Below, one piece after another: positions 17,835-36,180 of a DNA stretch of 64,000 nt (position 1 is its first letter; every line of letters starts with the position of its first letter). This DNA is from Methanohalophilus euhalobius (lineage in GTDB: Archaea > Halobacteriota > Methanosarcinia > Methanosarcinales > Methanosarcinaceae), in contig NZ_OBDR01000001.1 in assembly GCF_900215215.1 (NCBI RefSeq), positions 1 through 64,000 on the forward strand. Direction: 5' to 3'. The notes under the pieces are model-generated. The model made no database searches. It saw only the letters and a list, made by a program, of their open reading frames with translations, and was not told the DNA's origin. A program made the position numbers and the translations under genes.

Positions 17835-18488
17835 ATGGGAAAACAGGAAATGTATGATAAACTCAGAGATGCGATTGTCAACCAGGACATCAATGGTACT
17901 GGTCCCCTCGTCCAGGAAGCCCTGGATGCAGGTTTAACTCCTTTCGAGATCATCAATGATGGTCTGTCTGTGGGTATGAAGATCATCGGTGACAAATTCG
18001 AAGCCGCCGAAGTCTACCTTCCCCAGATAATGATGTCTGCCAAGGCCATGAAAGCCGCCATGGAAATTCTTGATCCACTCCTTGCAGAGGATGAGACCTC
18101 AGAATCCGTTGGAACCTGCATCAAGTTCGTCCAGGAAGGCGACATCCACGATATAGGTCACAGGCTTGTTGGAACCATGCTCGGTGCAAACGGTTTCACC
18201 GTTGTCGACATGGGTGTTGACGTACCCAACGACAAGGTCATCGAAGAAGTAGCAGCCCACAAAGGCGAGAAACTTCTGCTTTCCGGCTCTGCCCTTATGA
18301 CCACTTCCATGCTCGGCCAGAAAGACGTCATGCGTCTGCTCGAAGAAGAAGGTCTGCGTGACTCTGTAAAAGTAATGTTCGGTGGAGCTCCGGTCACAGA
18401 TTCCTGGATTAAGGAAATCGGTGCTGACGCAACAGCAGAAAACGCAGCAGAAGCCGCAAACGTGGCTCTTGACTTAATGAAAAAATAA
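17835..18488 (+). CDS. mtmC: Monomethylamine corrinoid protein (copy 1)
   Basis: MtmC, 217 residues, carries the corrinoid that MtmB methylates with monomethylamine and that MtbA then demethylates to make methyl-CoM. It has an N-terminal four-helix cap domain and a C-terminal Rossmann B12 domain with the cobalt-ligand motif DIHDIG (H105). It is followed after 18 bases by mtmB, the typical mtmCB order. The protein is identical to copy 2 at 31477. GGTGAT before the ATG is a strong archaeal ribosome binding site. Identity as MtmC rather than MtbC/MttC rests on the adjoining mtmB. Confidence 0.95.
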   Translation: MGKQEMYDKLRDAIVNQDINGTGPLVQEALDAGLTPFEIINDGLSVGMKIIGDKFEAAEVYLPQIMMSAKAMKAAMEILDPLLAEDETSESVGTCIKFVQEGDIHDIGHRLVGTMLGANGFTVVDMGVDVPNDKVIEEVAAHKGEKLLLSGSALMTTSMLGQKDVMRLLEEEGLRDSVKVMFGGAPVTDSWIKEIGADATAENAAEAANVALDLMKK

Positions 18489-18506
18489 AACAGGGAGGAT
18501 TAATTT

Positions 18507-19883
18507 ATGACATTTACCAAATCCGTAACTTGCTATGATTTTTATGACCGTGCCCAGACCGGTGAGAAATGCACCCAGGATGACTGGGACTTAATGACCA
18601 TCCCGATGAAGTCAATGGAACTGAAGCAGAAATACAATCTTGACTTTGGTAAGGAATTTGTTCCAACCGACAAGGACCAGATGGAAAGGCTGTTCAAAGC
18701 CGGTTTCGAGATGCTTCTGGACTGTGGTATCTGGTGTACCGACACCCACCGTATCGTCAAATACACAGAAGACGAGATCTGGGATGCAATCAACAATCCG
18801 CACAGGGAATTCCAGCTTGGTAGCGGTCGTGACGCAGTCTACTGCCGCAAGCGTAGTGTAGGTGACAAGAGAAAACCAATCGTGCAGGGTGGTCCAACCG
18901 GTTCCCCAATATCTGAAGATGTCTTCATGCCTGTGCACATGAGTTACGCTCTTGAGAAAGAATGTGACACCATCGTCAACGGTGTAATGACCTCTGCCCG
19001 TGGTAAATCTCCTGTACCCGGCAGTCCTTACGAAGTTCTTGCATCCAAATCCGAAACCCGGCAGATCAGGACCGCCGCTTCCATGGCAGGTCGTCCCGGT
19101 ATGGCAGTTTAGGGCCCTGAGACTTCTCTGTCTGCCCAGGGTAACATCGGTGCAGACTGTGCCGGTGGTATGAACTCCAACGACAGCCACGAAGTCTCCC
19201 AGCTGAACGAACTTAAGATCGATCTTGACGCAATCGCTGTCATTGCCCACTACAAGGGTAACAGCGACATCATCATGGATGAACAGATGCCTATCTTTGG
19301 AGGCTACGCCGGCGGTGTTGAGGAAACAGCCATTGTCGATGTTGCAACCCACCTGAACTCCATGGTAATGAGCAGTGCCAGCTGGCACCTTGATGGTCCT
19401 GTGCACATTCGCTGGGGCTCCACCAATACCCGTGAGACCCTTATGATCGCAGGTTGGACATGTGCCACCATTTCCGAGTTCACAGATCTGCTGTCCGGTA
19501 ACCAGTACTATCCATGTGCAGGTCCATGTACCGAGATGTGCCTGCTTGAGGCTGCTGCCCAGTCCATGACCGATACGGCATCCGGTCGTGAGATCCTGTC
19601 CGGTGTTGCATCTGCAAAGGGGGTCATAACTGACAAGACTACCGGTATGGAAGCACGTATGATGGGAGAAGTCGCACGTGCAACCGCTGGTATGGATATC
19701 GATACTGTCAACCAGATTCTGGATAAACTTGTAGCAAGCTATGAAGGCGATTATGCCAATGCGCCTGCAGGCAAGACGTTCCAGGAATGTTATGATGTTG
19801 CAACCGTTACACCGACCGAGGAATACGTCAAGGTCTATGACGGGGCAAAGAAGAAACTCGAAGACCTGGGTCTGGTGTTCTGA
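18507..19883 (+). CDS. mtmB: Monomethylamine methyltransferase with in-frame pyrrolysine (copy 1)
   Basis: MtmB transfers the methyl group of monomethylamine to MtmC. The frame runs 458 residues, with one amber codon (TAG at 19110-19112) at codon 202 after GRPGMAV and before GPETSLSAQGN. This is exactly the known pyrrolysine site, so the gene is a single CDS, although a simple ORF search splits it in two (18507-19112 and 19170-19883). Decoding needs tRNA-Pyl and PylRS, which are not in this window. The region after the TAG corresponds to the proposed PYLIS element. A hairpin terminator follows directly. Confidence 0.97.
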
Positions 19884-19981: not shown

Positions 19982-20764
19982 ATGGGTTCTTCGCTAAGTG
20001 ATACGGTTTGGCTTTCTGATAAGAGATTAAATCTCTTGCTTCTTTTAATGGAAGGTCCCAGGAACATCGATCAGATCAAGACATCTCTGAATGTGACTTC
20101 CAGGGGGATGATGCCCCAGATAAAAAAACTGAAAGAGAAGTACCTGATAGTTGAAGAGGGTGATCAATACTGTCTTTCCACGATTGGGGAATTAATTGTT
20201 GAGAAAATGCTTCCTCTCTTGAACACGATAGAGATGGTGAACAATGATAATGCCTATCTGGAAGAACATGACTTAAGTGAACTACCACCAAAATTATTTC
20301 GCAGGCTGTATGAACTTGGAAATTACCTTTTGATTGAACCAGACCTGAACCATACATTTGAAATTCCCCGGGAATTCACTGAAAACCTGCTCAAGTCCAA
20401 AAATATAAAATCGATAATCTCTTTTTACCGACCGGAATATCCTGATATTTATTGTGAATTAATGGAACATGCAGAGAGCATGTCATTGATTATGACACCA
20501 CCGGTTTTTGAAAGAATGAAGCAGTCATGCAATTCTAAAATGACCCGCCTTATAAGGGCTCCGCATATTCATGTGTATATTTTCCCGGAAAATAGCAGAC
20601 CTCCGGGCCTTGACACTTCAGATTGGTTTACTTACATAAGTTTTCTTGATAAAAACGGCCGTTATGATCATAAAGATATAATGAGTTTTGACGAGAGTGC
20701 CCTTAAATGGGGAGATGAGCTTTTCGACTATTATTGCTCTCTTTGTGAAAAGATTGAAATTTGA
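19982..20764 (+). CDS. FilR1/DUF1724-type winged-helix regulator A
   Basis: A 260-residue transcription regulator: an N-terminal ArsR-like winged helix (residues 8-75, with IDQIKTSLNVTSRGMMPQIKKL as the recognition region) and a C-terminal FilR1 (DUF1724) domain (about 100-255). Methanosarcina Msr regulators, which control methanol and methylsulfide methyltransferase genes, are in this family. Its place immediately behind mtmB1 makes it a candidate monomethylamine regulator. The ATG at 19982 has no Shine-Dalgarno sequence. It is paralogous to the next gene, 10 bases downstream. Confidence 0.88.
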   Translation: MGSSLSDTVWLSDKRLNLLLLLMEGPRNIDQIKTSLNVTSRGMMPQIKKLKEKYLIVEEGDQYCLSTIGELIVEKMLPLLNTIEMVNNDNAYLEEHDLSELPPKLFRRLYELGNYLLIEPDLNHTFEIPREFTENLLKSKNIKSIISFYRPEYPDIYCELMEHAESMSLIMTPPVFERMKQSCNSKMTRLIRAPHIHVYIFPENSRPPGLDTSDWFTYISFLDKNGRYDHKDIMSFDESALKWGDELFDYYCSLCEKIEI

Positions 20765-20774
20765 AGGATATTAG

Positions 20775-21596
20775 ATGACTCCACATGAACTTATTGACAC
20801 TATTTTTCTTTCCGACAAGAGAGAAAGATTCCTTTTGCTTTTGCTTGAAGGTCCCACTGATATAAAAAAAAGTAAAGAGCATCTAAATGTAACCTCTTCC
20901 TCCATTCTTCCTCAAATCAAAAAGTTACGGGAAAAAGGCCTTGTCTTCAAAGATGATGAGGGGATCTATGACCTTACAACTACCGGGCGCTTGATAGTTG
21001 AAAACCTGTCACCACTTGCATGTATGCTTGATGTTTTTGATTCAAAGGAGTATTACTGGGACACACGCGATATGGAGGCAATTCCCCGCCATTTGGTGGA
21101 AAATATAGGTCAGCTGGGTGAAGTTGAAGTTATTGAACCCGATCTTGACCACATGTATGATCTGCAACTGCAGTTACATTCAAATATGCTCAAATCCAAT
21201 TATATTAAATGTCTGATTTCTTTTTTCCATCCTGATTATGTTGAATTTTTTAATTCCCTTTCTTCTGCAGGCAAGAATCTGGAATTGATTTTTACGGGTT
21301 CAGTAATGGAAAGAATACTGGCCGAATCGCCTTCAGATATACAAAAACTGATCGAGCAGGAAAATGTTGATATAAGGCTTTTCCGGGAAAACGACTACAT
21401 TCCTTCATTGATTATTGGTGATGATTTTACTTACTTCTGTTTTTTCAATAAATCACACATGTATGACCACAGGGACATAATAAGTTTCACTGAGGGATCA
21501 ATTGAATGGGGGACACAGCTATTTGTTTATTATCGTGACCTTTCTGTTCCTGTTTCCTCTGAGATGCTGTCTGAAATCATAAACGGAAGTGAGTGA
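20775..21596 (+). CDS. FilR1/DUF1724-type winged-helix regulator B
   Basis: A 273-residue paralogue of the upstream regulator with the same layout: winged helix (IKKSKEHLNVTSSSILPQIKKL) and FilR1 domain. Shared landmarks include FLSDKRERFLLLLLEGP at the start and YDHRDIISF near the end (YDHKDIMSF in regulator A). AAGGA upstream supports the ATG at 20775. It overlaps the start of the histidine-kinase gene by eight bases. Tandem FilR1 genes may act together, as reported for Msr pairs in Methanosarcina. Confidence 0.88.
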   Translation: MTPHELIDTIFLSDKRERFLLLLLEGPTDIKKSKEHLNVTSSSILPQIKKLREKGLVFKDDEGIYDLTTTGRLIVENLSPLACMLDVFDSKEYYWDTRDMEAIPRHLVENIGQLGEVEVIEPDLDHMYDLQLQLHSNMLKSNYIKCLISFFHPDYVEFFNSLSSAGKNLELIFTGSVMERILAESPSDIQKLIEQENVDIRLFRENDYIPSLIIGDDFTYFCFFNKSHMYDHRDIISFTEGSIEWGTQLFVYYRDLSVPVSSEMLSEIINGSE

Positions 21597-23766
21597 TTTG
21601 GCATGGAAAGACCTGTCACTGAGGTTTAAACTTGTTCTTTATATTGTGGTCAGTGTTTTTCTCATCCTGTCTATTTCATCTTCAATAGTCATATCAACGG
21701 TTACTTCACAGGAGGAACAGCTCGCTTATGACCAATCTGCTAAAATGGCACAAAGTTATGCCAACCAATTCAATGCAGATATGAAGTCCAATATGGCTAT
21801 TGCAAGGGATATAGCCACCACAATGGGGGCTATTCATGATTCTTCTACAAGAGAAGAAGCCAACGATATAATAAGAAGTATACTTGAGGATAATCCTCAG
21901 CTGATAGGAACTTATAGTGGCTTTGAGCCCGATGCTTTTGATGGAGAGGATGAACGTTACATAAATACCACAGCTCATGATGGGACGGGCAGATTCCTTC
22001 CCTACTGGAACAGGATAGGGGGGGATATAGATGTTGAGCCACTTGTTGATTACAGTACATCAGATTATTACCAGTTACCAAAACGGACAAAGCAGGATGT
22101 TTTAACCGAGCCCTATTTCTATCAGGGTGCTTTGATTGTGAGTTATGTCTCCCCGATAATTGAAAACGATAAATTCATAGGTATAGGCGGGGTGGATGTA
22201 GGTCTGGATTACGTAGATAATACGGTTAGTAGTGTAAAGGCGTTTGAGACCGGTTATCTGTTTATGGTAAGCAATACCGGTATTATTATTTCCCATCCCA
22301 CAAATAAGGATTGGATTGGTTCCAAAAAACTCAGGGACTTTGATAATCCCGTCTTTCATGAGGTTGCCAGTGATATTGAAAAGGGCAAAAGTGGTTATGT
22401 CGATATCGTTGACCCGTCAAACGGGAAGGATGTGATACTCTTTTATGAACCCATTTCGACAGGCAATTATTCAATTCTTCTTTCTGTCCCGAAGGATGAG
22501 ATTTTTGCAGGCGTAGCTTCCCTGCGGTCGGATCTGTTTACGATCTATACATTTTCTATCGTTTTTATGGGACTGATGGCATATCTTATCGCAGCTTCCT
22601 TTAACAATCGGATAAACGGGATTGTGGATGAGTTCAGGACAATTTCGGATTCAGCTCTGGAAGGTGACCTTGACATCAGGGCAAATACGGATGTAGACAT
22701 TGATTTCAAGAAGATTCCGGAAGGACTCAATGAGGTGCTTGATAGCCTACAGGACGCAAACCGGTTGCGTGCAGAAATGGAAGATATAGTAAACCGCAGC
22801 CCGGTCATCGTATTCAAGTGGAAGTCCCAGAAAAACTGGCCGGTAGAATTTGTATCCAGGAACATTTCCCAGTTTGGTTATACCCAGGATGAGTTTACGA
22901 AGGGCAACATTACCTATGCGGATATAGTAGTGCCTGAAGATCTTGGAAATGTTGAGCAGAATCTCCTTGAAGCAATTAATAGAAGTGACAGGGAATTTAA
23001 TTATGAATATCGTATAATTACGAGGGATGGAGAGATCAAGTGGGTTGAAGAGAGAACTTTCATCGGTAACTTCTCTGCAAACCACTCAAATAAATTACAG
23101 GGAATCATTCTGGATATCAATGAACGTAAAAAGGCTGAAGAGGCTTTGAAAAAGATGGGAAAGATTCGAATTAAGGAGATTCATCACAGGATAAAGAATA
23201 ATTTACAGGTCGTCTCCGGTCTTCTTTACCTTGAATCTCTCAATTTCAAATCGGATGAAGTTATGGAGGTCTTCAAGCAAAGTGAGAACAGGGTACGTTC
23301 AATTGCCCTGATCCATGAAAAGTTGTATCATTCAGAAAATCTCACCAGTCTTAATTTATCGGATTATATTGAAGATCTTGTTGAACACCTCATCAATTCC
23401 TATAATATTGATGAGGATATTATCAAAATTCATCTTAATATCGAGAATCTATACTTGGATATGGATTCTGCCGTACCTCTGGGCATTATTATCAATGAAT
23501 TGACCTCAAATGCCCTGCAACATGCTTTTATTAAGGGTGAGAATGGGGAAATCAGCATTGACTTTTTTAAGTCTGCAGGTCAATTAATACTTAATGTTGA
23601 AGATTCAGGGGGTGCTTTCCCGGATGATATCGACTTCAGAAATACCGAATCACTGGGATTACAACTTGTTTCCAATCTCGTAAGCCAGATAGAAGGGGAT
23701 ATTGAACTTGATACTACAGATTACAGGACCTGTTTCAGGATTACTTTTAGGGATAAAGAGGTGTGA
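21589..23766 (+). CDS. Sensor histidine kinase: dCache, PAS, HisKA_2, HATPase
   Basis: A 725-residue membrane sensor. One membrane helix (about 14-36) precedes a large extracellular double-Cache domain (about 45-310), which contains GRFLPYWNR, DYSTSDYY and GGVDVGLDY, positions that form ligand pockets in Cache domains. A second helix (about 320-342), a PAS domain (about 385-510, with ITRDGEIKWVEERT), the HisKA_2 box (IHHRIKNNLQV) and a HATPase with NELTSNALQHAF, EDSGGAFP and SLGLQLV follow. The start is GTG at 21589, overlapping regulator B; a TTG at 21598 is possible. The ligand is unknown; an amine would fit the location. Confidence 0.88.
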   Translation: MSDLAWKDLSLRFKLVLYIVVSVFLILSISSSIVISTVTSQEEQLAYDQSAKMAQSYANQFNADMKSNMAIARDIATTMGAIHDSSTREEANDIIRSILEDNPQLIGTYSGFEPDAFDGEDERYINTTAHDGTGRFLPYWNRIGGDIDVEPLVDYSTSDYYQLPKRTKQDVLTEPYFYQGALIVSYVSPIIENDKFIGIGGVDVGLDYVDNTVSSVKAFETGYLFMVSNTGIIISHPTNKDWIGSKKLRDFDNPVFHEVASDIEKGKSGYVDIVDPSNGKDVILFYEPISTGNYSILLSVPKDEIFAGVASLRSDLFTIYTFSIVFMGLMAYLIAASFNNRINGIVDEFRTISDSALEGDLDIRANTDVDIDFKKIPEGLNEVLDSLQDANRLRAEMEDIVNRSPVIVFKWKSQKNWPVEFVSRNISQFGYTQDEFTKGNITYADIVVPEDLGNVEQNLLEAINRSDREFNYEYRIITRDGEIKWVEERTFIGNFSANHSNKLQGIILDINERKKAEEALKKMGKIRIKEIHHRIKNNLQVVSGLLYLESLNFKSDEVMEVFKQSENRVRSIALIHEKLYHSENLTSLNLSDYIEDLVEHLINSYNIDEDIIKIHLNIENLYLDMDSAVPLGIIINELTSNALQHAFIKGENGEISIDFFKSAGQLILNVEDSGGAFPDDIDFRNTESLGLQLVSNLVSQIEGDIELDTTDYRTCFRITFRDKEV

Positions 23767-24158
23767 TATTGAAAAAATCAAGAATACTGGTTGTAGAAGA
23801 TGAAGCTATAGTGGCAATGGTTATAAAACGCCGTTTGCAAGACCTGGGTTATATTGTTTCAGGCGTTGCTTCTACGGGAAAGGATGCTATCACCAAGGTA
23901 GAAGGAACTTTCCCGGATTTGGTACTTATGGATATCAGGCTTAAAGGGGATATGGATGGTATTGAAGCAACCAAAACAATCAAAGATAGATTTTCTCTGC
24001 CGGTGGTTTATCTTACGGCTCATTCGGATGATGTAACTTTTAAGAAAGCCAAAGAAACAGATCCGGATGGATATATATTGAAACCTTTTACTGAAAAAGA
24101 CCTGAGTACTACCATTGAGATCGCTCTTCACAAATTCCGAAAAGAAAAAGGGAACTGA
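23763..24158 (+). CDS. Single-domain response regulator
   Basis: A 131-residue CheY-like receiver with no output domain. The acidic pair is in VVEDEA, the phosphoacceptor is D57 in LMDIRL, the conserved Thr lies in YLTAHS and Lys in LKPFT. The start is GTG at 23763, overlapping the kinase stop by four bases (GTGA), so it is the kinase's likely partner. Without an output domain it must act through another protein; the two FilR1 regulators in the same transcription unit are obvious candidates, but this is inference. Confidence 0.9.
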   Translation: MILKKSRILVVEDEAIVAMVIKRRLQDLGYIVSGVASTGKDAITKVEGTFPDLVLMDIRLKGDMDGIEATKTIKDRFSLPVVYLTAHSDDVTFKKAKETDPDGYILKPFTEKDLSTTIEIALHKFRKEKGN

Positions 24159-31476: not shown

Positions 31477-32130
31477 ATGGGAAAACAGGAAATGTATGAT
31501 AAACTCAGAGATGCGATTGTCAACCAGGACATCAATGGTACTGGTCCCCTCGTCCAGGAAGCCCTGGATGCAGGTTTAACTCCTTTCGAGATCATCAATG
31601 ATGGTCTGTCTGTGGGTATGAAGATCATCGGTGACAAATTCGAAGCCGCCGAAGTCTACCTTCCCCAGATAATGATGTCTGCCAAGGCCATGAAAGCCGC
31701 CATGGAAATTCTTGATCCACTCCTTGCAGAGGATGAGACCTCAGAATCCGTTGGAACCTGCATCAAGTTCGTCCAGGAAGGCGACATCCACGATATAGGT
31801 CACAGGCTTGTTGGAACCATGCTCGGTGCAAACGGTTTCACCGTTGTCGACATGGGTGTTGACGTACCCAACGACAAGGTCATCGAAGAAGTAGCAGCCC
31901 ACAAAGGCGAGAAACTTCTGCTTTCCGGCTCTGCCCTTATGACCACTTCCATGCTCGGCCAGAAAGACGTCATGCGTCTGCTCGAAGAAGAAGGTCTGCG
32001 TGACTCTGTAAAAGTAATGTTCGGTGGAGCTCCGGTCACAGATTCCTGGATTAAGGAAATCGGTGCTGACGCAACAGCAGAAAACGCAGCAGAAGCCGCA
32101 AACGTGGCTCTTGACTTAATGAAAAAATAA
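31477..32130 (+). CDS. mtmC: Monomethylamine corrinoid protein (copy 2)
   Basis: This protein (217 residues) is identical in sequence to copy 1, including the DIHDIG motif with H105. By eye the DNA is also identical across the whole gene. The frame is open 49 codons further upstream (to 31330), but the ATG at 31477 has the same GGTGAT site as copy 1 and starts at the same residue. It is followed after 18 bases by mtmB2. Confidence 0.95.
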   Translation: MGKQEMYDKLRDAIVNQDINGTGPLVQEALDAGLTPFEIINDGLSVGMKIIGDKFEAAEVYLPQIMMSAKAMKAAMEILDPLLAEDETSESVGTCIKFVQEGDIHDIGHRLVGTMLGANGFTVVDMGVDVPNDKVIEEVAAHKGEKLLLSGSALMTTSMLGQKDVMRLLEEEGLRDSVKVMFGGAPVTDSWIKEIGADATAENAAEAANVALDLMKK

Positions 32131-32148
32131 AACAGGGAGGATTAATTT

Positions 32149-33525
32149 ATGACATTTACCAAATCCGTAACTTGCTATGATTTTTATGACCGTGCCCAGA
32201 CCGGTGAGAAATGCACCCAGGATGACTGGGACTTAATGACCATCCCGATGAAGTCAATGGAACTGAAGCAGAAATACAATCTTGACTTTGGTAAGGAATT
32301 TGTTCCAACCGACAAGGACCAGATGGAAAGGCTGTTCAAAGCCGGTTTCGAGATGCTTCTGGACTGTGGTATCTGGTGTACCGACACCCACCGTATCGTC
32401 AAATACACAGAAGACGAGATCTGGGATGCAATCAACAATCCGCACAGGGAATTCCAGCTTGGTAGCGGTCGTGACGCAGTCTACTGCCGCAAGCGTAGTG
32501 TAGGTGACAAGAGAAAACCAATCGTGCAGGGTGGTCCAACCGGTTCCCCAATATCTGAAGATGTCTTCATGCCTGTGCACATGAGTTACGCTCTTGAGAA
32601 AGAATGTGACACCATCGTCAACGGTGTAATGACCTCTGCCCGTGGTAAATCTCCTGTACCCGGCAGTCCTTACGAAGTTCTTGCATCCAAATCCGAAACC
32701 CGGCAGATCAGGACCGCCGCTTCCATGGCAGGTCGTCCCGGTATGGCAGTTTAGGGCCCTGAGACTTCTCTGTCTGCCCAGGGTAACATCGGTGCAGACT
32801 GTGCCGGTGGTATGAACTCCAACGACAGCCACGAAGTCTCCCAGCTGAACGAACTTAAGATCGATCTTGACGCAATCGCTGTCATTGCCCACTACAAGGG
32901 TAACAGTGACATCATCATGGATGAACAGATGCCAATTTTCGGAGGCTACGCCGGTGGTATCGAGGAAACAGCCATTGTCAACGTTGCCACGCATATTAAT
33001 TCCATGGTAATGAGCAGTGCCAGCTGGCACCTTGATGGTCCTGTGCACATTCGCTGGGGCTCCACCAATACCCGTGAGACCCTTATGATCGCAGGTTGGA
33101 CATGTGCCACCATTTCCGAGTTCACAGATCTGCTGTCCGGTAACCAGTACTATCCATGTGCAGGTCCATGTACCGAGATGTGCCTGCTTGAGGCTGCTGC
33201 CCAGTCCATGACCGATACTGCATCCGGTCGTGAGATCCTGTCCGGTGTTGCATCTGCAAAGGGTGTTATCACTGACAAGACTACCGGTATGGAAGCACGT
33301 ATGATGGGAGAAGTCGCACGTGCAACCGCGGGTATGGATATCGATACTGTCAACCAGATTCTGGATAAACTTGTAGCAAGCTATGAAGGCGATTATGCCA
33401 ACGCACCTGCAGGCAAGACGTTCCAGGAATGCTATGATGTTGCAACCGTTACACCGACCGAGGAATACGTCAAGGTCTATGACGGGGCAAAGAAAAAACT
33501 CGAAGACCTGGGTCTGGTGTTCTGA
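32149..33525 (+). CDS. mtmB: Monomethylamine methyltransferase with in-frame pyrrolysine (copy 2)
   Basis: A second 458-residue MtmB, with the amber codon at 32752-32754 (codon 202). It differs from copy 1 by only a few residues, for example GGIEETAIVNVATHINSM where copy 1 has GGVEETAIVDVATHLNSM. The DNA matches copy 1 exactly until just after the amber region; changes cluster in the last 620 bases. A hairpin terminator follows, then the permease genes. Confidence 0.97.
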
Positions 33526-33530
33526 ATGTG

Positions 33531-33557
33531 AAAGAGCCATTTTTATGGCTCTTTTTT
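33531..33557 (+). terminator. Hairpin terminator after mtmB2
   Basis: AAAGAGCCAT and ATGGCTCTTT form a 10-bp stem around TTTT, followed by more T residues. It starts five bases after the mtmB2 stop. Some read-through into the permease genes 37 bases further on is plausible, since no clear TATA box follows it. Confidence 0.75.
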
Positions 33558-33593
33558 ATGTATTGTTTATAACAACAAATAGGAGGCATCCAA

Positions 33594-33692
33594 ATGGGTA
33601 CTTGGACTATAATTAACGGCGTCATTTACCTGGTATGTTTCGCCATGATCGGCTGGATGTTGCTTGATGCAATGAAGGTAGCGAAAAAATAA
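33594..33692 (+). CDS. 32-residue membrane peptide upstream of the amine permease
   Basis: A short ORF that starts MGTWTIINGVIYLV and ends AMKVAKK. It is one hydrophobic helix (about residues 5-25) with a lysine-rich C-terminus, so the inside-positive rule places the C-terminus in the cytoplasm. AGGAGG stands nine bases before the ATG, which is strong support for translation. The permease starts 14 bases after the stop. The arrangement resembles small accessory subunits of secondary transporters. I do not recognise a named family. Confidence 0.7.
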   Translation: MGTWTIINGVIYLVCFAMIGWMLLDAMKVAKK

Positions 33693-33706
33693 TGGGGGAA
33701 TATTGA

Positions 33707-35092
33707 ATGACCGATGAAATTACTAATGATCCCTTGGAAGAATCTACCAGTCTTGTGAAGACACTAAGACCATACCATGTATGGGCACTTGGTGTCGGGA
33801 TTGTGCTGGTGGGTGAATATATGGGATGGAACTTTACGGTTGCCAAAGGTGGTATATTGGGTTCCCTTTTGGCATTACTTGTTGCCGGTACAATGTATCT
33901 GATGGTTTCTCTTTGTGCAAGTGAGCTAGGTGCGTCTACCAAACTTGCGGGAGGACCTTATGACTGGGCAAGATTATTTGTAGGTCCCGGTGCAGCGGCA
34001 CTGGTGGGACTTGCTGTTTATATGGAATACATCGCTCTGGAAGCCGCAGATTCCATTGTTGTGGCATCAATTGCAGAATCAATATTGCCGGAGATACAAG
34101 TATTCCCGATCACGCTTTTAGTGATCACATTCTTGACATTTATGAATTACAGGGGGGTTGTGGCAGCGCTCAACCTTAATTTCGCATTGAGTTTTACTGC
34201 ATTCATTGCAATTCTTGTGTTCTTTGCCATGAGTATTACAGGTGTTGGAGGAGTCTGGAATCCGGGTAACTTAATATCCGGTGCTATTCCAAATGGCTTG
34301 ATAGGAATTTTCGCTGCATTGCAATTTGGTCCCTGGTTCTATCTGGGTATAGAAGGAGCGGCTATGAGTGCTGAAGAATGTAAACATCCTTCCAGGGCAG
34401 TGCCTCTGGGTCAACAGGCAGGGATGATCACTCTTTTGCTTGCAGCCGGTATGACACTGTATGTATGTTCTGGCCTTATACCCACAGACCAGCTTGGTGT
34501 ATCTGTCTATCCACTTTATGAGGCAGCCACTAACAGCGGTGTACAATTGCTCGTAGTACTTCTTGCAATAGGTACTCTCTTTACATGTCTTGCAAGTGCC
34601 AACGGTACTATCTGTGACTCATCCAGATCATGGTATGCCCTATCAAGGGACCAATTCCTGACTCCATGGTTCTCTGCTGTACATCCAAAATATAACACGC
34701 CTTACAGGGCTGTTATTTTCACTATGCCAATTGCGATCGCATTTGCATTCAGTGGTTTCCTGGATCAGGTTATCACATTCTCGATAGTATCCGGACTAGT
34801 GTGCTATGTGATGATTCCATTCTCCCTGATTCGTTTCAGAAAGATGTTCCCACAACACAACAACAAGGTGCGTCCATTCGTTGGCCCGTTGCAACCCTGG
34901 CTTGCATACTTCACAATATTCCTGGCACTTGTGATCATGTCAACCCTGCAGTGGGGATACAGGTATAATCTGATATTTGCCCTGCTGTTCTATGCGATTG
35001 CATATTTCTATTTCAACCGGAGATATCGGAGTTTAGAAGTTAGCCATGACTGGGGCGAAGAGATGGGTTGGCCCGAGCCTGTGAGGACATAA
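33707..35092 (+). CDS. APC-family amine permease (probable methylamine permease)
   Basis: A 461-residue transporter with about twelve membrane segments, closest in character to ethanolamine/amino-acid permeases of the APC superfamily: LRPYHVWALGVGIVLVGEYMGWN at the first helix, KLAGGPYDWAR after helix 2, and GIEGAAMSAEECKHPSR near the middle. Its place behind mtmC2B2 suggests monomethylamine import, as proposed for MtmP of Methanosarcina. GGGGGAA lies upstream of the ATG. Confidence 0.85.
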   Translation: MTDEITNDPLEESTSLVKTLRPYHVWALGVGIVLVGEYMGWNFTVAKGGILGSLLALLVAGTMYLMVSLCASELGASTKLAGGPYDWARLFVGPGAAALVGLAVYMEYIALEAADSIVVASIAESILPEIQVFPITLLVITFLTFMNYRGVVAALNLNFALSFTAFIAILVFFAMSITGVGGVWNPGNLISGAIPNGLIGIFAALQFGPWFYLGIEGAAMSAEECKHPSRAVPLGQQAGMITLLLAAGMTLYVCSGLIPTDQLGVSVYPLYEAATNSGVQLLVVLLAIGTLFTCLASANGTICDSSRSWYALSRDQFLTPWFSAVHPKYNTPYRAVIFTMPIAIAFAFSGFLDQVITFSIVSGLVCYVMIPFSLIRFRKMFPQHNNKVRPFVGPLQPWLAYFTIFLALVIMSTLQWGYRYNLIFALLFYAIAYFYFNRRYRSLEVSHDWGEEMGWPEPVRT

Positions 35093-35105
35093 GGAGGTAA
35101 TGATC

Positions 35106-35393
35106 TTGGAAGATAAACAAAAAAAGGAAAATGTTGATTCTGTAAGATACATGAGCAAACTGCGGCAGGACGCTCTTGTTGTGGTGGTTTTGATGGGTAT
35201 TTTGTTCTTCTCAGAGTCATTCATCTTCTATACTATAATTACCACTGTATGGGACAGCACGCCTGAACTTTCAAGTATATTCCCGGTTTATGCGCTGTTC
35301 TTACTGCTGGTACTGGGTATAGGAACCGCTGCATGTCTAAGGGTGTATAGTTCTATAAAGGAGCATATGTATACATTCAGGTATTATGACTGA
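35106..35393 (+). CDS. Small two-helix membrane protein 1
   Basis: An unrecognised protein of about 95 residues with two membrane helices (about 25-47 and 58-80) and charged ends. An ATG at 35100 is only two bases after GGAGG, too close for normal initiation; the in-frame TTG at 35106 (start of LEDKQKK) has an 8-base spacer and is preferred. It follows the permease by a few bases and is probably co-transcribed with it. Confidence 0.65.
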   Translation: MEDKQKKENVDSVRYMSKLRQDALVVVVLMGILFFSESFIFYTIITTVWDSTPELSSIFPVYALFLLLVLGIGTAACLRVYSSIKEHMYTFRYYD

Positions 35394-35405
35394 GGAGGAT
35401 TAAAT

Positions 35406-35657
35406 ATGGCAGTTACTAGCAGGGGAAAGGAAAGAAGCGTATTCATGCAGATATTTGACATCTTGTTTATTTTTATAGTGGCAGGTATCTGTGTTGTACT
35501 GCCTGTTGTCCTGCAAGGTACCGTCCTTGTAGGCTGGGGGGAGTCAGGAGGCATGAAATTTATCTGGGATCCGGTGTCTTATTTCAGCCTGGTCGCTGTA
35601 ATTCTGGTGTTCTTTGCCGTGGTACTTTTCCACTCGGTTAAGAATTACAGGTTCTGA
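35406..35657 (+). CDS. Small two-helix membrane protein 2
   Basis: An 83-residue protein with two membrane helices (about 14-38 and 54-76) joined by a loop with GWGESGGMKFIWDP. GGAGG lies upstream of the ATG with 7-8 bases between. No named family is recognised. It starts 12 bases after the previous small gene, and a hairpin terminator follows its stop codon, so the transporter unit probably ends here. Confidence 0.7.
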   Translation: MAVTSRGKERSVFMQIFDILFIFIVAGICVVLPVVLQGTVLVGWGESGGMKFIWDPVSYFSLVAVILVFFAVVLFHSVKNYRF

Positions 35658-35688
35658 AGTTGTCAGCAGTGCTGGCAACTTATTTTTT
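35657..35688 (+). terminator. Hairpin terminator after small membrane protein 2
   Basis: AAGTTGTCAGC pairs with GCTGGCAACTT (one G-U pair) around a tiny loop, followed by TATTTTTT. It overlaps the last base of the stop codon. Confidence 0.65.
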
Positions 35689-35709: not shown

Positions 35710-36180
35710 ATGACTGATAATATTAACCGTTTAAAAGATAAGGATAATCCAACGGAAACTGAAAAGAAACATATACCGGTAATCGAAGGACCGTCAATGA
35801 TGACAGCAGGTGGTACCTATGAAGTAACGGTTTCTGTAGGAATTGAACCACATGTAATGGAAGAGAACCACTACATCGAATGGATAGACCTCTATCTTGC
35901 AGATCAGAAGATAGGCAGGGTGGAGCTGGGGCCATCTGCAGAAAAAGCAGAAGCTACATTTAACGTAACTCCTCATGAGGAGCTAATTGGTGAAAAAGAA
36001 TTTGAGGTCTGTCACATAAGGGGTGTAAATGTTTGTGGAGATTGTGGTCTGACTTCTGTGATTACGGATTTTAAAGCAATTGAAAGTTGTAATGTCCATG
36101 GCCTCTGGGAATCTTCCATGGAAGTGGAAGTTATGTCCTCAAAACAAAAACCAGGCAAAAAATGCAGCTGGAAAGCTTGA
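35710..36180 (+). CDS. Superoxide reductase-like (neelaredoxin family) protein
   Basis: A 156-residue cytosolic protein of the desulfoferrodoxin/neelaredoxin family, which reduces superoxide to peroxide at a non-heme iron centre. The expected ligands are present: H21 (KKHIP), H48 (EPHVM), H54 (NHYIEW), C127 and H130 (CNVHGLWE). Unusual are three additional cysteines, C101, C109 and C112 (CHIRG then CGDC), in a segment before the ligand Cys, plus C152 near the end; the N-terminal desulforedoxin domain is absent. It follows the transporter unit after a terminator, so it may have its own promoter. Confidence 0.8.
   Translation: MTDNINRLKDKDNPTETEKKHIPVIEGPSMMTAGGTYEVTVSVGIEPHVMEENHYIEWIDLYLADQKIGRVELGPSAEKAEATFNVTPHEELIGEKEFEVCHIRGVNVCGDCGLTSVITDFKAIESCNVHGLWESSMEVEVMSSKQKPGKKCSWKA

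What the first reader, a model, noticed from the sequence alone, without database searches (positions are those of the whole stretch)
33594..35688. Methylamine permease operon with three tiny membrane proteins, one of 32 residues
The permease is preceded by a 32-codon ORF with a strong ribosome binding site and followed by two 80-95-residue two-helix proteins. The spacing (14, about 13 and 12 bases) implies one transcript. A multi-component amine uptake complex, with small subunits for a nominally single-chain APC permease, would be new.
Basis: partly seen in the sequence, partly recalled or inferred. Interest (0 to 1): 0.7.

Follow-up and report, generated by a model that had tools for sequence, protein, structure and literature searches.

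The report
Four-part methylamine importer with tiny helpers
Next to the gene for a likely methylamine importer, this methane-making archaeon keeps three small membrane-protein genes, one of only 32 codons, and related sets of four occur in methylamine-eating bacteria in a different gene order, which suggests that the importer works as a four-part machine rather than as a single protein.

Summary
The 32-codon ORF (S), APC permease (P), 95-residue (D1) and 83-residue (D2) two-helix proteins lie 14, 13 and 12 bases apart behind mtmCB in a Methanohalophilus genome. S is a real gene: 68 of 68 loci open, dN/dS 0.16 against about 1.0 and 1.5 in the other frames. All four genes occur together in all 64 intact permease loci of a 150-genome sample of the order; the few orphans are decaying or contig-edge copies. 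None of the small proteins matches a known family.

The new evidence came from outside the window. The 42-45% identical permeases of methylotrophic Proteobacteria carry three small membrane genes in the order D1-D2-S-P, several beside N-methylglutamate methylamine-oxidation genes. Profile comparison links S, D1 and D2 to them (0 of 199-200 column-shuffled controls reach the observed score; D1 is the weakest). Ethanolamine permeases, about 30% identical, lack them. Conservation across two domains despite shuffled gene order argues for physical subunits.

Precedents exist in general: MgtS bound to the APC transporter GkApcT, 4F2hc with LATs, and sORF_05 beside the unrelated MttP of Methanosarcina. 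Complex formation, translation of this S and methylamine transport are not shown. Structure models were uninformative.

The parts
33594..33692 (+). S: 32-aa single-helix membrane protein, MGTWTIINGVIYLVCFAMIGWMLLDAMKVAKK; strong ribosome binding site
   Evidence: dN/dS 0.16 and open in 68/68 loci; related to the bacterial 46-56-aa protein
33707..35092 (+). P: 461-aa APC-superfamily permease, inferred methylammonium importer (MtmP-like)
   Evidence: PF00324 E 7.7e-41; TIGR00908 ethanolamine permease 218.9 bits, below its cut-off of 381.75; 42-45% identity to permeases in bacterial methylamine clusters
35106..35393 (+). D1: 95-aa two-helix membrane protein with conserved tail S-x-K-x-H-M-x(3)-YYD (start TTG 35106; alternative ATG 35100)
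   Evidence: related to the bacterial ~100-aa protein
35406..35657 (+). D2: 83-aa two-helix membrane protein with conserved loop QG-x-VLV-x-W...F-x-WDP and tail YHSVK-x-Y
   Evidence: related to the bacterial ~126-aa protein
33581..33586 (+). Shine-Dalgarno AGGAGG of S
   Evidence: sequence
33530..33555 (+). terminator-like hairpin between mtmB and S
35657..35681 (+). terminator-like hairpin after D2, end of the unit
32149..33525 (+). mtmB, monomethylamine methyltransferase with in-frame TAG (pyrrolysine), directly upstream
31477..32130 (+). mtmC, corrinoid protein (start taken from the second copy of the gene in the window)

Best explanation
S, P, D1 and D2 form one methylammonium import system. 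P is the APC-fold carrier. S is a single helix that packs along one side of P, as MgtS does on GkApcT. D1 and D2 are two-helix subunits, with N- and C-termini inside by the positive-inside rule, that add four more helices, an outer D2 loop near the substrate entrance and cytoplasmic tails. Together they assemble or stabilise P, or tune its affinity or activity; which of these is not known. Shown: the four genes are real, constrained, co-inherited, and conserved as a set across Archaea and Bacteria in different orders. Inferred: physical complex, methylamine as substrate, the role of each small protein.
For: (1) 64 of 64 intact permease loci carry all four genes in order, including second and third copies within a genome; orphans are an S with an in-frame stop, D1/D2 fragments with stops, frameshifted permeases and contig ends. 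(2) Purifying selection on all three small genes: dN/dS 0.16 (S), 0.19 (D1), 0.17 (D2), 0.07 for P. (3) Bacterial quartets: the same 22 plasmid records hold the >=42% identical permease, the D1-like and the D2-like genes; S is found in 20 by search, plus an unannotated S-like ORF read in one of the two Paraburkholderia records. The order is D1-D2-S-P. (4) Profile-profile scores against 199-200 column-shuffled controls: S 33.3 (maximum control 17.5), D1 22.1 (18.0), D2 39.6 (18.5); all six crossed comparisons of unlike pairs give probability below 2%. (5) Some bacterial quartets lie next to mgsABC-gmaS of the N-methylglutamate pathway (PMC4543880), the archaeal ones usually next to mtmB: two unrelated methylamine pathways, one permease set. 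(6) About 30% identical ethanolamine permeases lack the partners, and the quartet permeases group apart from them (82/86). (7) Variable positions of the helices tend to one side: P 0.07 for S, 0.02 for D1 helix 1, 0.07 for D2 helix 1, weak singly.
Against: No complex, co-purification, translation or transport data. Two AlphaFold runs on read-through pseudo-fusions had low confidence (pLDDT 57, pTM 0.37; pLDDT 38, pTM 0.26) and say nothing either way. The D1 match to bacteria is weak (HH-suite probability 12%). 22 of 72 genomes with MtmB lack the quartet, so it is not required for methylamine growth in general. Gene clusters can be conserved for co-regulation alone. Helix-face statistics are marginal.
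Confidence: 0.62

Rival explanations
1. The small proteins are assembly or stability factors that act during insertion of the permease and are not part of the mature transporter.
For: MgtS was reported to stabilise MgtA, and it binds GkApcT while the GkApcT melting temperature barely changes without it (PMC5803215). The strict linkage and co-decay fit an assembly factor equally well.
Against: Three separate conserved partners are many for assembly of one APC carrier; close relatives such as Eat manage with none.
Confidence: 0.2
2. D1 and/or D2 belong to the methylamine pathway rather than to the carrier: membrane anchors that tether the catabolic enzymes (MtmB/MtmC or GmaS) to the permease, or sensors of methylamine.
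For: Conserved cytoplasmic tails (HM-x(3)-YYD; YHSVK-x-Y); usual placement next to mtmB or gmaS/mgs.
Against: The enzymes differ entirely between archaea and bacteria while the three small proteins stay with the permease; second archaeal copies away from mtmB keep D1 and D2.
Confidence: 0.1
3. S is a leader peptide whose translation controls the permease, and D1 and D2 are unrelated passengers of the operon.
For: S precedes P with a strong ribosome binding site and a 14-base gap.
Against: Selection is on the amino acid sequence (dN/dS 0.16); S-P gaps vary from about 4 to over 100 bases; the bacterial S is longer (46-56 aa) and its operon begins with D1 and D2; the three small genes are never found apart in intact form.
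Confidence: 0.05
4. The permease takes up another amine or amino acid, and the link with methylamine genes is incidental.
For: Nearest named family is ethanolamine permease, although the hit is below its cut-off; several bacterial loci have no gmaS within the stretch fetched.
Against: Adjacency to methylamine genes in two unrelated pathways and, in Aminobacter, on the plasmid that carries the N-methylglutamate genes (PMC8235418).
Confidence: 0.12

Closest known systems
GkApcT-MgtS (Geobacillus APC transporter crystallised with a small single-helix E. coli protein; PMC5803215, 5OQT)
   Same: APC-superfamily carrier with a small single-helix protein packed on TM5; 5OQT is among the PDB sequence matches of P (E 2.1e-11).
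   Different: MgtS is a host protein from another species, not encoded with the carrier, oriented with its N-terminus in the cytoplasm; no D1/D2. S shows no PDB sequence match.
sORF_05 with trimethylamine permease MM_1691 of Methanosarcina mazei (PMC11456600)
   Same: Tiny membrane protein encoded with a methylamine permease in a methanogen; translated and membrane-associated there; proposed subunit.
   Different: By position sORF_05 should be the 49-aa protein downstream of an EamA-type (DMT) permease; different permease family, no sequence resemblance to S, no D1 or D2. The window's operon type is not the one described there.
Heteromeric amino acid transporters (4F2hc or rBAT with SLC7 light chains)
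   Same: APC carrier plus a single-helix partner; light chains are PDB matches of P.
   Different: The partner carries a large extracellular domain and is eukaryotic; S has 32 residues; no further small subunits.
Ethanolamine permease Eat (TIGR00908)
   Same: Closest named carrier family: 218.9 bits, about 30% identity.
   Different: Below the curated cut-off of 381.75; two Eat loci examined have no S, D1 or D2 neighbours.
Bacterial transporters with small subunits known from memory (MetP-MetS, ActP-DUF485, DUF4212 pairs, KdpF)
   Same: Principle of small one- or two-helix subunits for a large carrier.
   Different: Other carrier families; S, D1 and D2 hit none of these models.

Membership tests
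APC superfamily permease | Full-length match to the amino acid permease model above the curated cut-off | tested here: met
   PF00324 140.7 bits against 24.6, residues 33-416; PF13520 83 bits against 27
Ethanolamine permease (TIGR00908) | Score above the curated cut-off of 381.75 bits | tested here: not met
   218.9 bits
MtmP, monomethylamine permease of methanogens | Gene adjacent to mtmB in methylotrophic Methanosarcinaceae | tested here: met
   mtmB ends 68 bases before S; the same in most loci
MtmP, monomethylamine permease of methanogens | Transport of monomethylamine | not testable with these tools
   no transport data; context only
Four-part set shared with bacterial methylamine clusters (named here) | Permease at least 42% identical with D1-, D2- and S-like genes adjacent | tested here: met
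   22 plasmid records for P, D1 and D2; S in 20 by search; profile comparison
sORF_05 family (M. mazei) | Sequence resemblance to the 49-aa protein and linkage to an EamA-type permease | tested here: not met
   P is APC, not EamA; the sequences share no pattern by eye. That the 49-aa ORF is sORF_05 is inferred from its position
Small transporter subunits MetS, DUF485, DUF4212 and symporter small accessory protein | Match to their Pfam or NCBIfam model | tested here: not met
   no such hit for S, D1 or D2 (NCBIfam for the S family)
Multi-subunit transporter | Physical complex of the four proteins | not testable with these tools
   structure predictions of low confidence

The most novel reading that the evidence does not exclude
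A four-subunit secondary transporter for methylammonium, ancient or transferred between Archaea and Bacteria, in which S, D1 and D2 are needed for transport: the D2 loop caps the outer entrance and sets methylammonium apart from ammonium, while the D1 tail couples uptake to the catabolic enzymes or to nitrogen status. To my knowledge it would be the first APC-family (2.A.3) carrier with three dedicated membrane subunits.
Probability: 0.3. Interest if true: 0.78.

Novelty: new variant of a known kind. Interest (0 to 1): 0.62.

Why it matters
How methanogens and methylotrophic bacteria take up methylamine, a precursor of methane in saline sediments and a marine nitrogen source, is not established; the candidate permeases are known by gene context only. 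If the carrier needs three small partners, heterologous tests of the permease alone would fail and mislead. The cross-domain set gives three new protein families with a defined partner and a direct genetic test in tractable bacteria (Sinorhizobium, Paracoccus) as well as in Methanosarcina. It also adds to the evidence that proteins of about 30 residues can be fixed parts of secondary transporters.

Tried and rejected
Library matches for S, D1 and D2 (Pfam, NCBIfam, PDB): only chance-level hits. Identity of S with the published sORF_05: rejected; by position that is a different protein beside another permease family. S as leader peptide: rejected on coding selection and variable spacing. AlphaFold of in-frame read-through fusions D1-D2 and S-P-D1: confidence too low, so no fold search was run. 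A first alignment of mixed pieces misplaced the D1-D2 rows and was discarded. A first shuffle run timed out and was repeated with fewer controls. A sigma-70 promoter scan is not meaningful in an archaeon. The paper on mttP of M. barkeri is not held. Methanomassiliicoccales could not be searched with the relatives tool.

Full report
Observation. The window lies in a 1.94-Mb genome of a Methanohalophilus (the search with S returned Methanohalophilus sp. RSK with a 100% identical S, and M. profundi, as the closest relatives). S is at 33594-33692 with AGGAGG seven bases upstream. P is at 33707-35092. D1 starts best at TTG 35106, because GGAGG is then eight bases upstream and the N-terminus matches other species. 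D2 is at 35406-35657. Gaps are 14, 13 and 12 bases. Hydropathy predicts one helix in S and two each in D1 and D2. Terminator-like hairpins lie between mtmB and S and after D2, so whether the unit is read through from mtmCB or has its own promoter is open.

Is S a gene? Across 68 homologous loci S is open in every one. Pooled dN/dS is 0.16 for S, 0.19 for D1, 0.17 for D2 and 0.07 for P, whereas the S region read in the other two frames gives about 1.0 and 1.5, with stops in 68 and 49 of 68 loci. In 50 distinct S proteins N8, G9, Y12, L13 and L23 are invariant and W4, F16, D25 and A26 nearly so. Translation has not been measured for this gene.

Co-inheritance in Archaea. The permease occurs in 52 of 150 sampled genomes of the order, in seven genera of one family. 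Profiles of S, D1 and D2 find essentially the same genomes, and a phylum sample of 394 genomes adds none. Cross-tabulation gives 64 of 64 intact permeases with all three partners in the order S-P-D1-D2. The exceptions are damaged: two permeases broken into two pieces, one copy split over contig ends, an S with an in-frame stop and no permease, and D1/D2 fragments with stops. Duplicated copies, up to three in one genome, keep the whole set. A scan of GTDB r220 with S returned 43 loci, all in methylotrophic Methanosarcinaceae where named.

Link with methylamine. MtmB is found in 72 of the 150 genomes, and 50 of the 52 quartet genomes have it; the other two are fragmented assemblies. So 22 genomes with MtmB lack the quartet. 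In three of these an ammonium-transporter-family gene (PF00909 in the two scanned, by sequence in the third) lies downstream of mtmB instead. The quartet is therefore one of several solutions, not a general requirement.

Bacterial counterparts. A DNA search of plasmids gave weak hits in Aminobacter, Sinorhizobium and Paracoccus permeases. Their gene tables showed three small 'hypothetical' genes directly upstream of a full-length permease, which is 42-45% identical to P. In Paracoccus aminophilus and Sinorhizobium meliloti the set lies beside gmaS and mgsABC; PMC4543880 describes that P. aminophilus cluster as the N-methylglutamate pathway of methylamine oxidation. The proteins are about 100 aa (two helices), 126 aa (two helices) and 46-56 aa (one helix). 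Searching plasmids with the first two gives 22 records each, the same 22 that hold the permease at 42% or more; the third gives 20, and in one of the two remaining Paraburkholderia records an S-like ORF can be read by eye. The next permeases down the list are about 30% identical, mostly annotated as ethanolamine permeases, and those records have none of the partners; two loci were examined.

Are they the same proteins? Profile-profile comparison gives S against the 55-aa protein 93% probability, D2 against the 126-aa protein 91%, D1 against the 100-aa protein 12%; all six crossed pairs are below 2%. Because short hydrophobic proteins can match by composition, the bacterial columns were shuffled: scores 33.3, 22.1 and 39.6 for S, D1 and D2 compare with control maxima of 17.5, 18.0 and 18.5, none of 199-200 controls reaching the observed value. 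S and D2 are thus well supported; D1 is supported by score, size, topology and position together. A tree puts archaeal and bacterial quartet permeases in one group apart from Eat (82/86), with the warning that long branches meet.

Inference. The same four families stay together in two domains, in two different gene orders (S-P-D1-D2 and D1-D2-S-P), next to two unrelated methylamine pathways. Operon inertia does not readily explain a preserved set with a changed order; physical or obligate functional association does. The best reading is a methylammonium importer with three small membrane subunits. How each acts is not known. S may pack on the carrier as MgtS does on TM5 of GkApcT (PMC5803215); D2 has a conserved outer loop, longer in bacteria; D1 ends in a conserved cytoplasmic tail. 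Variable positions tend to one side of several helices, which fits packing against a partner but is marginal. AlphaFold gave no usable model.

Known work. The closest biological precedent is sORF_05 of Methanosarcina mazei, a translated, membrane-associated small protein proposed as a subunit of the trimethylamine permease (PMC11456600). In two Methanosarcina genomes (L122-L128) the ORF in the corresponding position is a 49-aa protein downstream of an EamA-type permease, unrelated to S and P; I infer its identity from position. I found no paper describing S, D1 or D2. One transcriptome of a methylotroph reports 'co-clustered conserved proteins' and amino-acid permeases induced on methylamine (PMC5023235), without naming them in the part read. 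The library held covers open-licence papers only.

Verdict.

Noticed in passing
window 35710-36180: A 156-aa desulfoferrodoxin-domain protein (PF01880) follows the quartet in most Methanosarcinaceae loci inspected but not after several second copies; function next to a methylamine operon unclear.
   Followed up: partly
window 17835-19883 and 31477-33525: Two near-identical mtmC-mtmB copies in one window; only the second is followed by the permease set.
   Followed up: no
L117 96-1343, L118 2194-3447, L119 2426-3676 (all minus strand): In genomes with MtmB but no quartet an ammonium-transporter-family gene (PF00909 in the two scanned) with a leader-like N-terminus lies downstream of mtmB: a candidate alternative methylamine carrier.
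   Followed up: partly
L124, L126, L122, L127: Downstream of the EamA-type MttP in Methanosarcina lie a ~97-aa protein and a 49-aa single-helix protein (probably the published sORF_05): a second, unrelated permease with a tiny membrane partner.
   Followed up: partly
L131 6392-7363, L132 6341-7269, L136 7043-8025, L137 6029-6997: Bacterial quartets are followed by conserved ~220-aa and ~90-aa proteins without a Pfam or NCBIfam family (L131 pair scanned); they may be further parts of the bacterial system.
   Followed up: no
L113 (G101) and L114 (G097): Decaying copies of the operon: an S with an in-frame stop and no permease downstream, and D1/D2 fragments with stops.
   Followed up: partly
window 19982-24158: Between the two mtmCB copies lie two related HTH regulators, a sensor-kinase-like protein and a response-regulator-like protein; similar regulators follow a Methanococcoides quartet copy (L035).
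   Followed up: no
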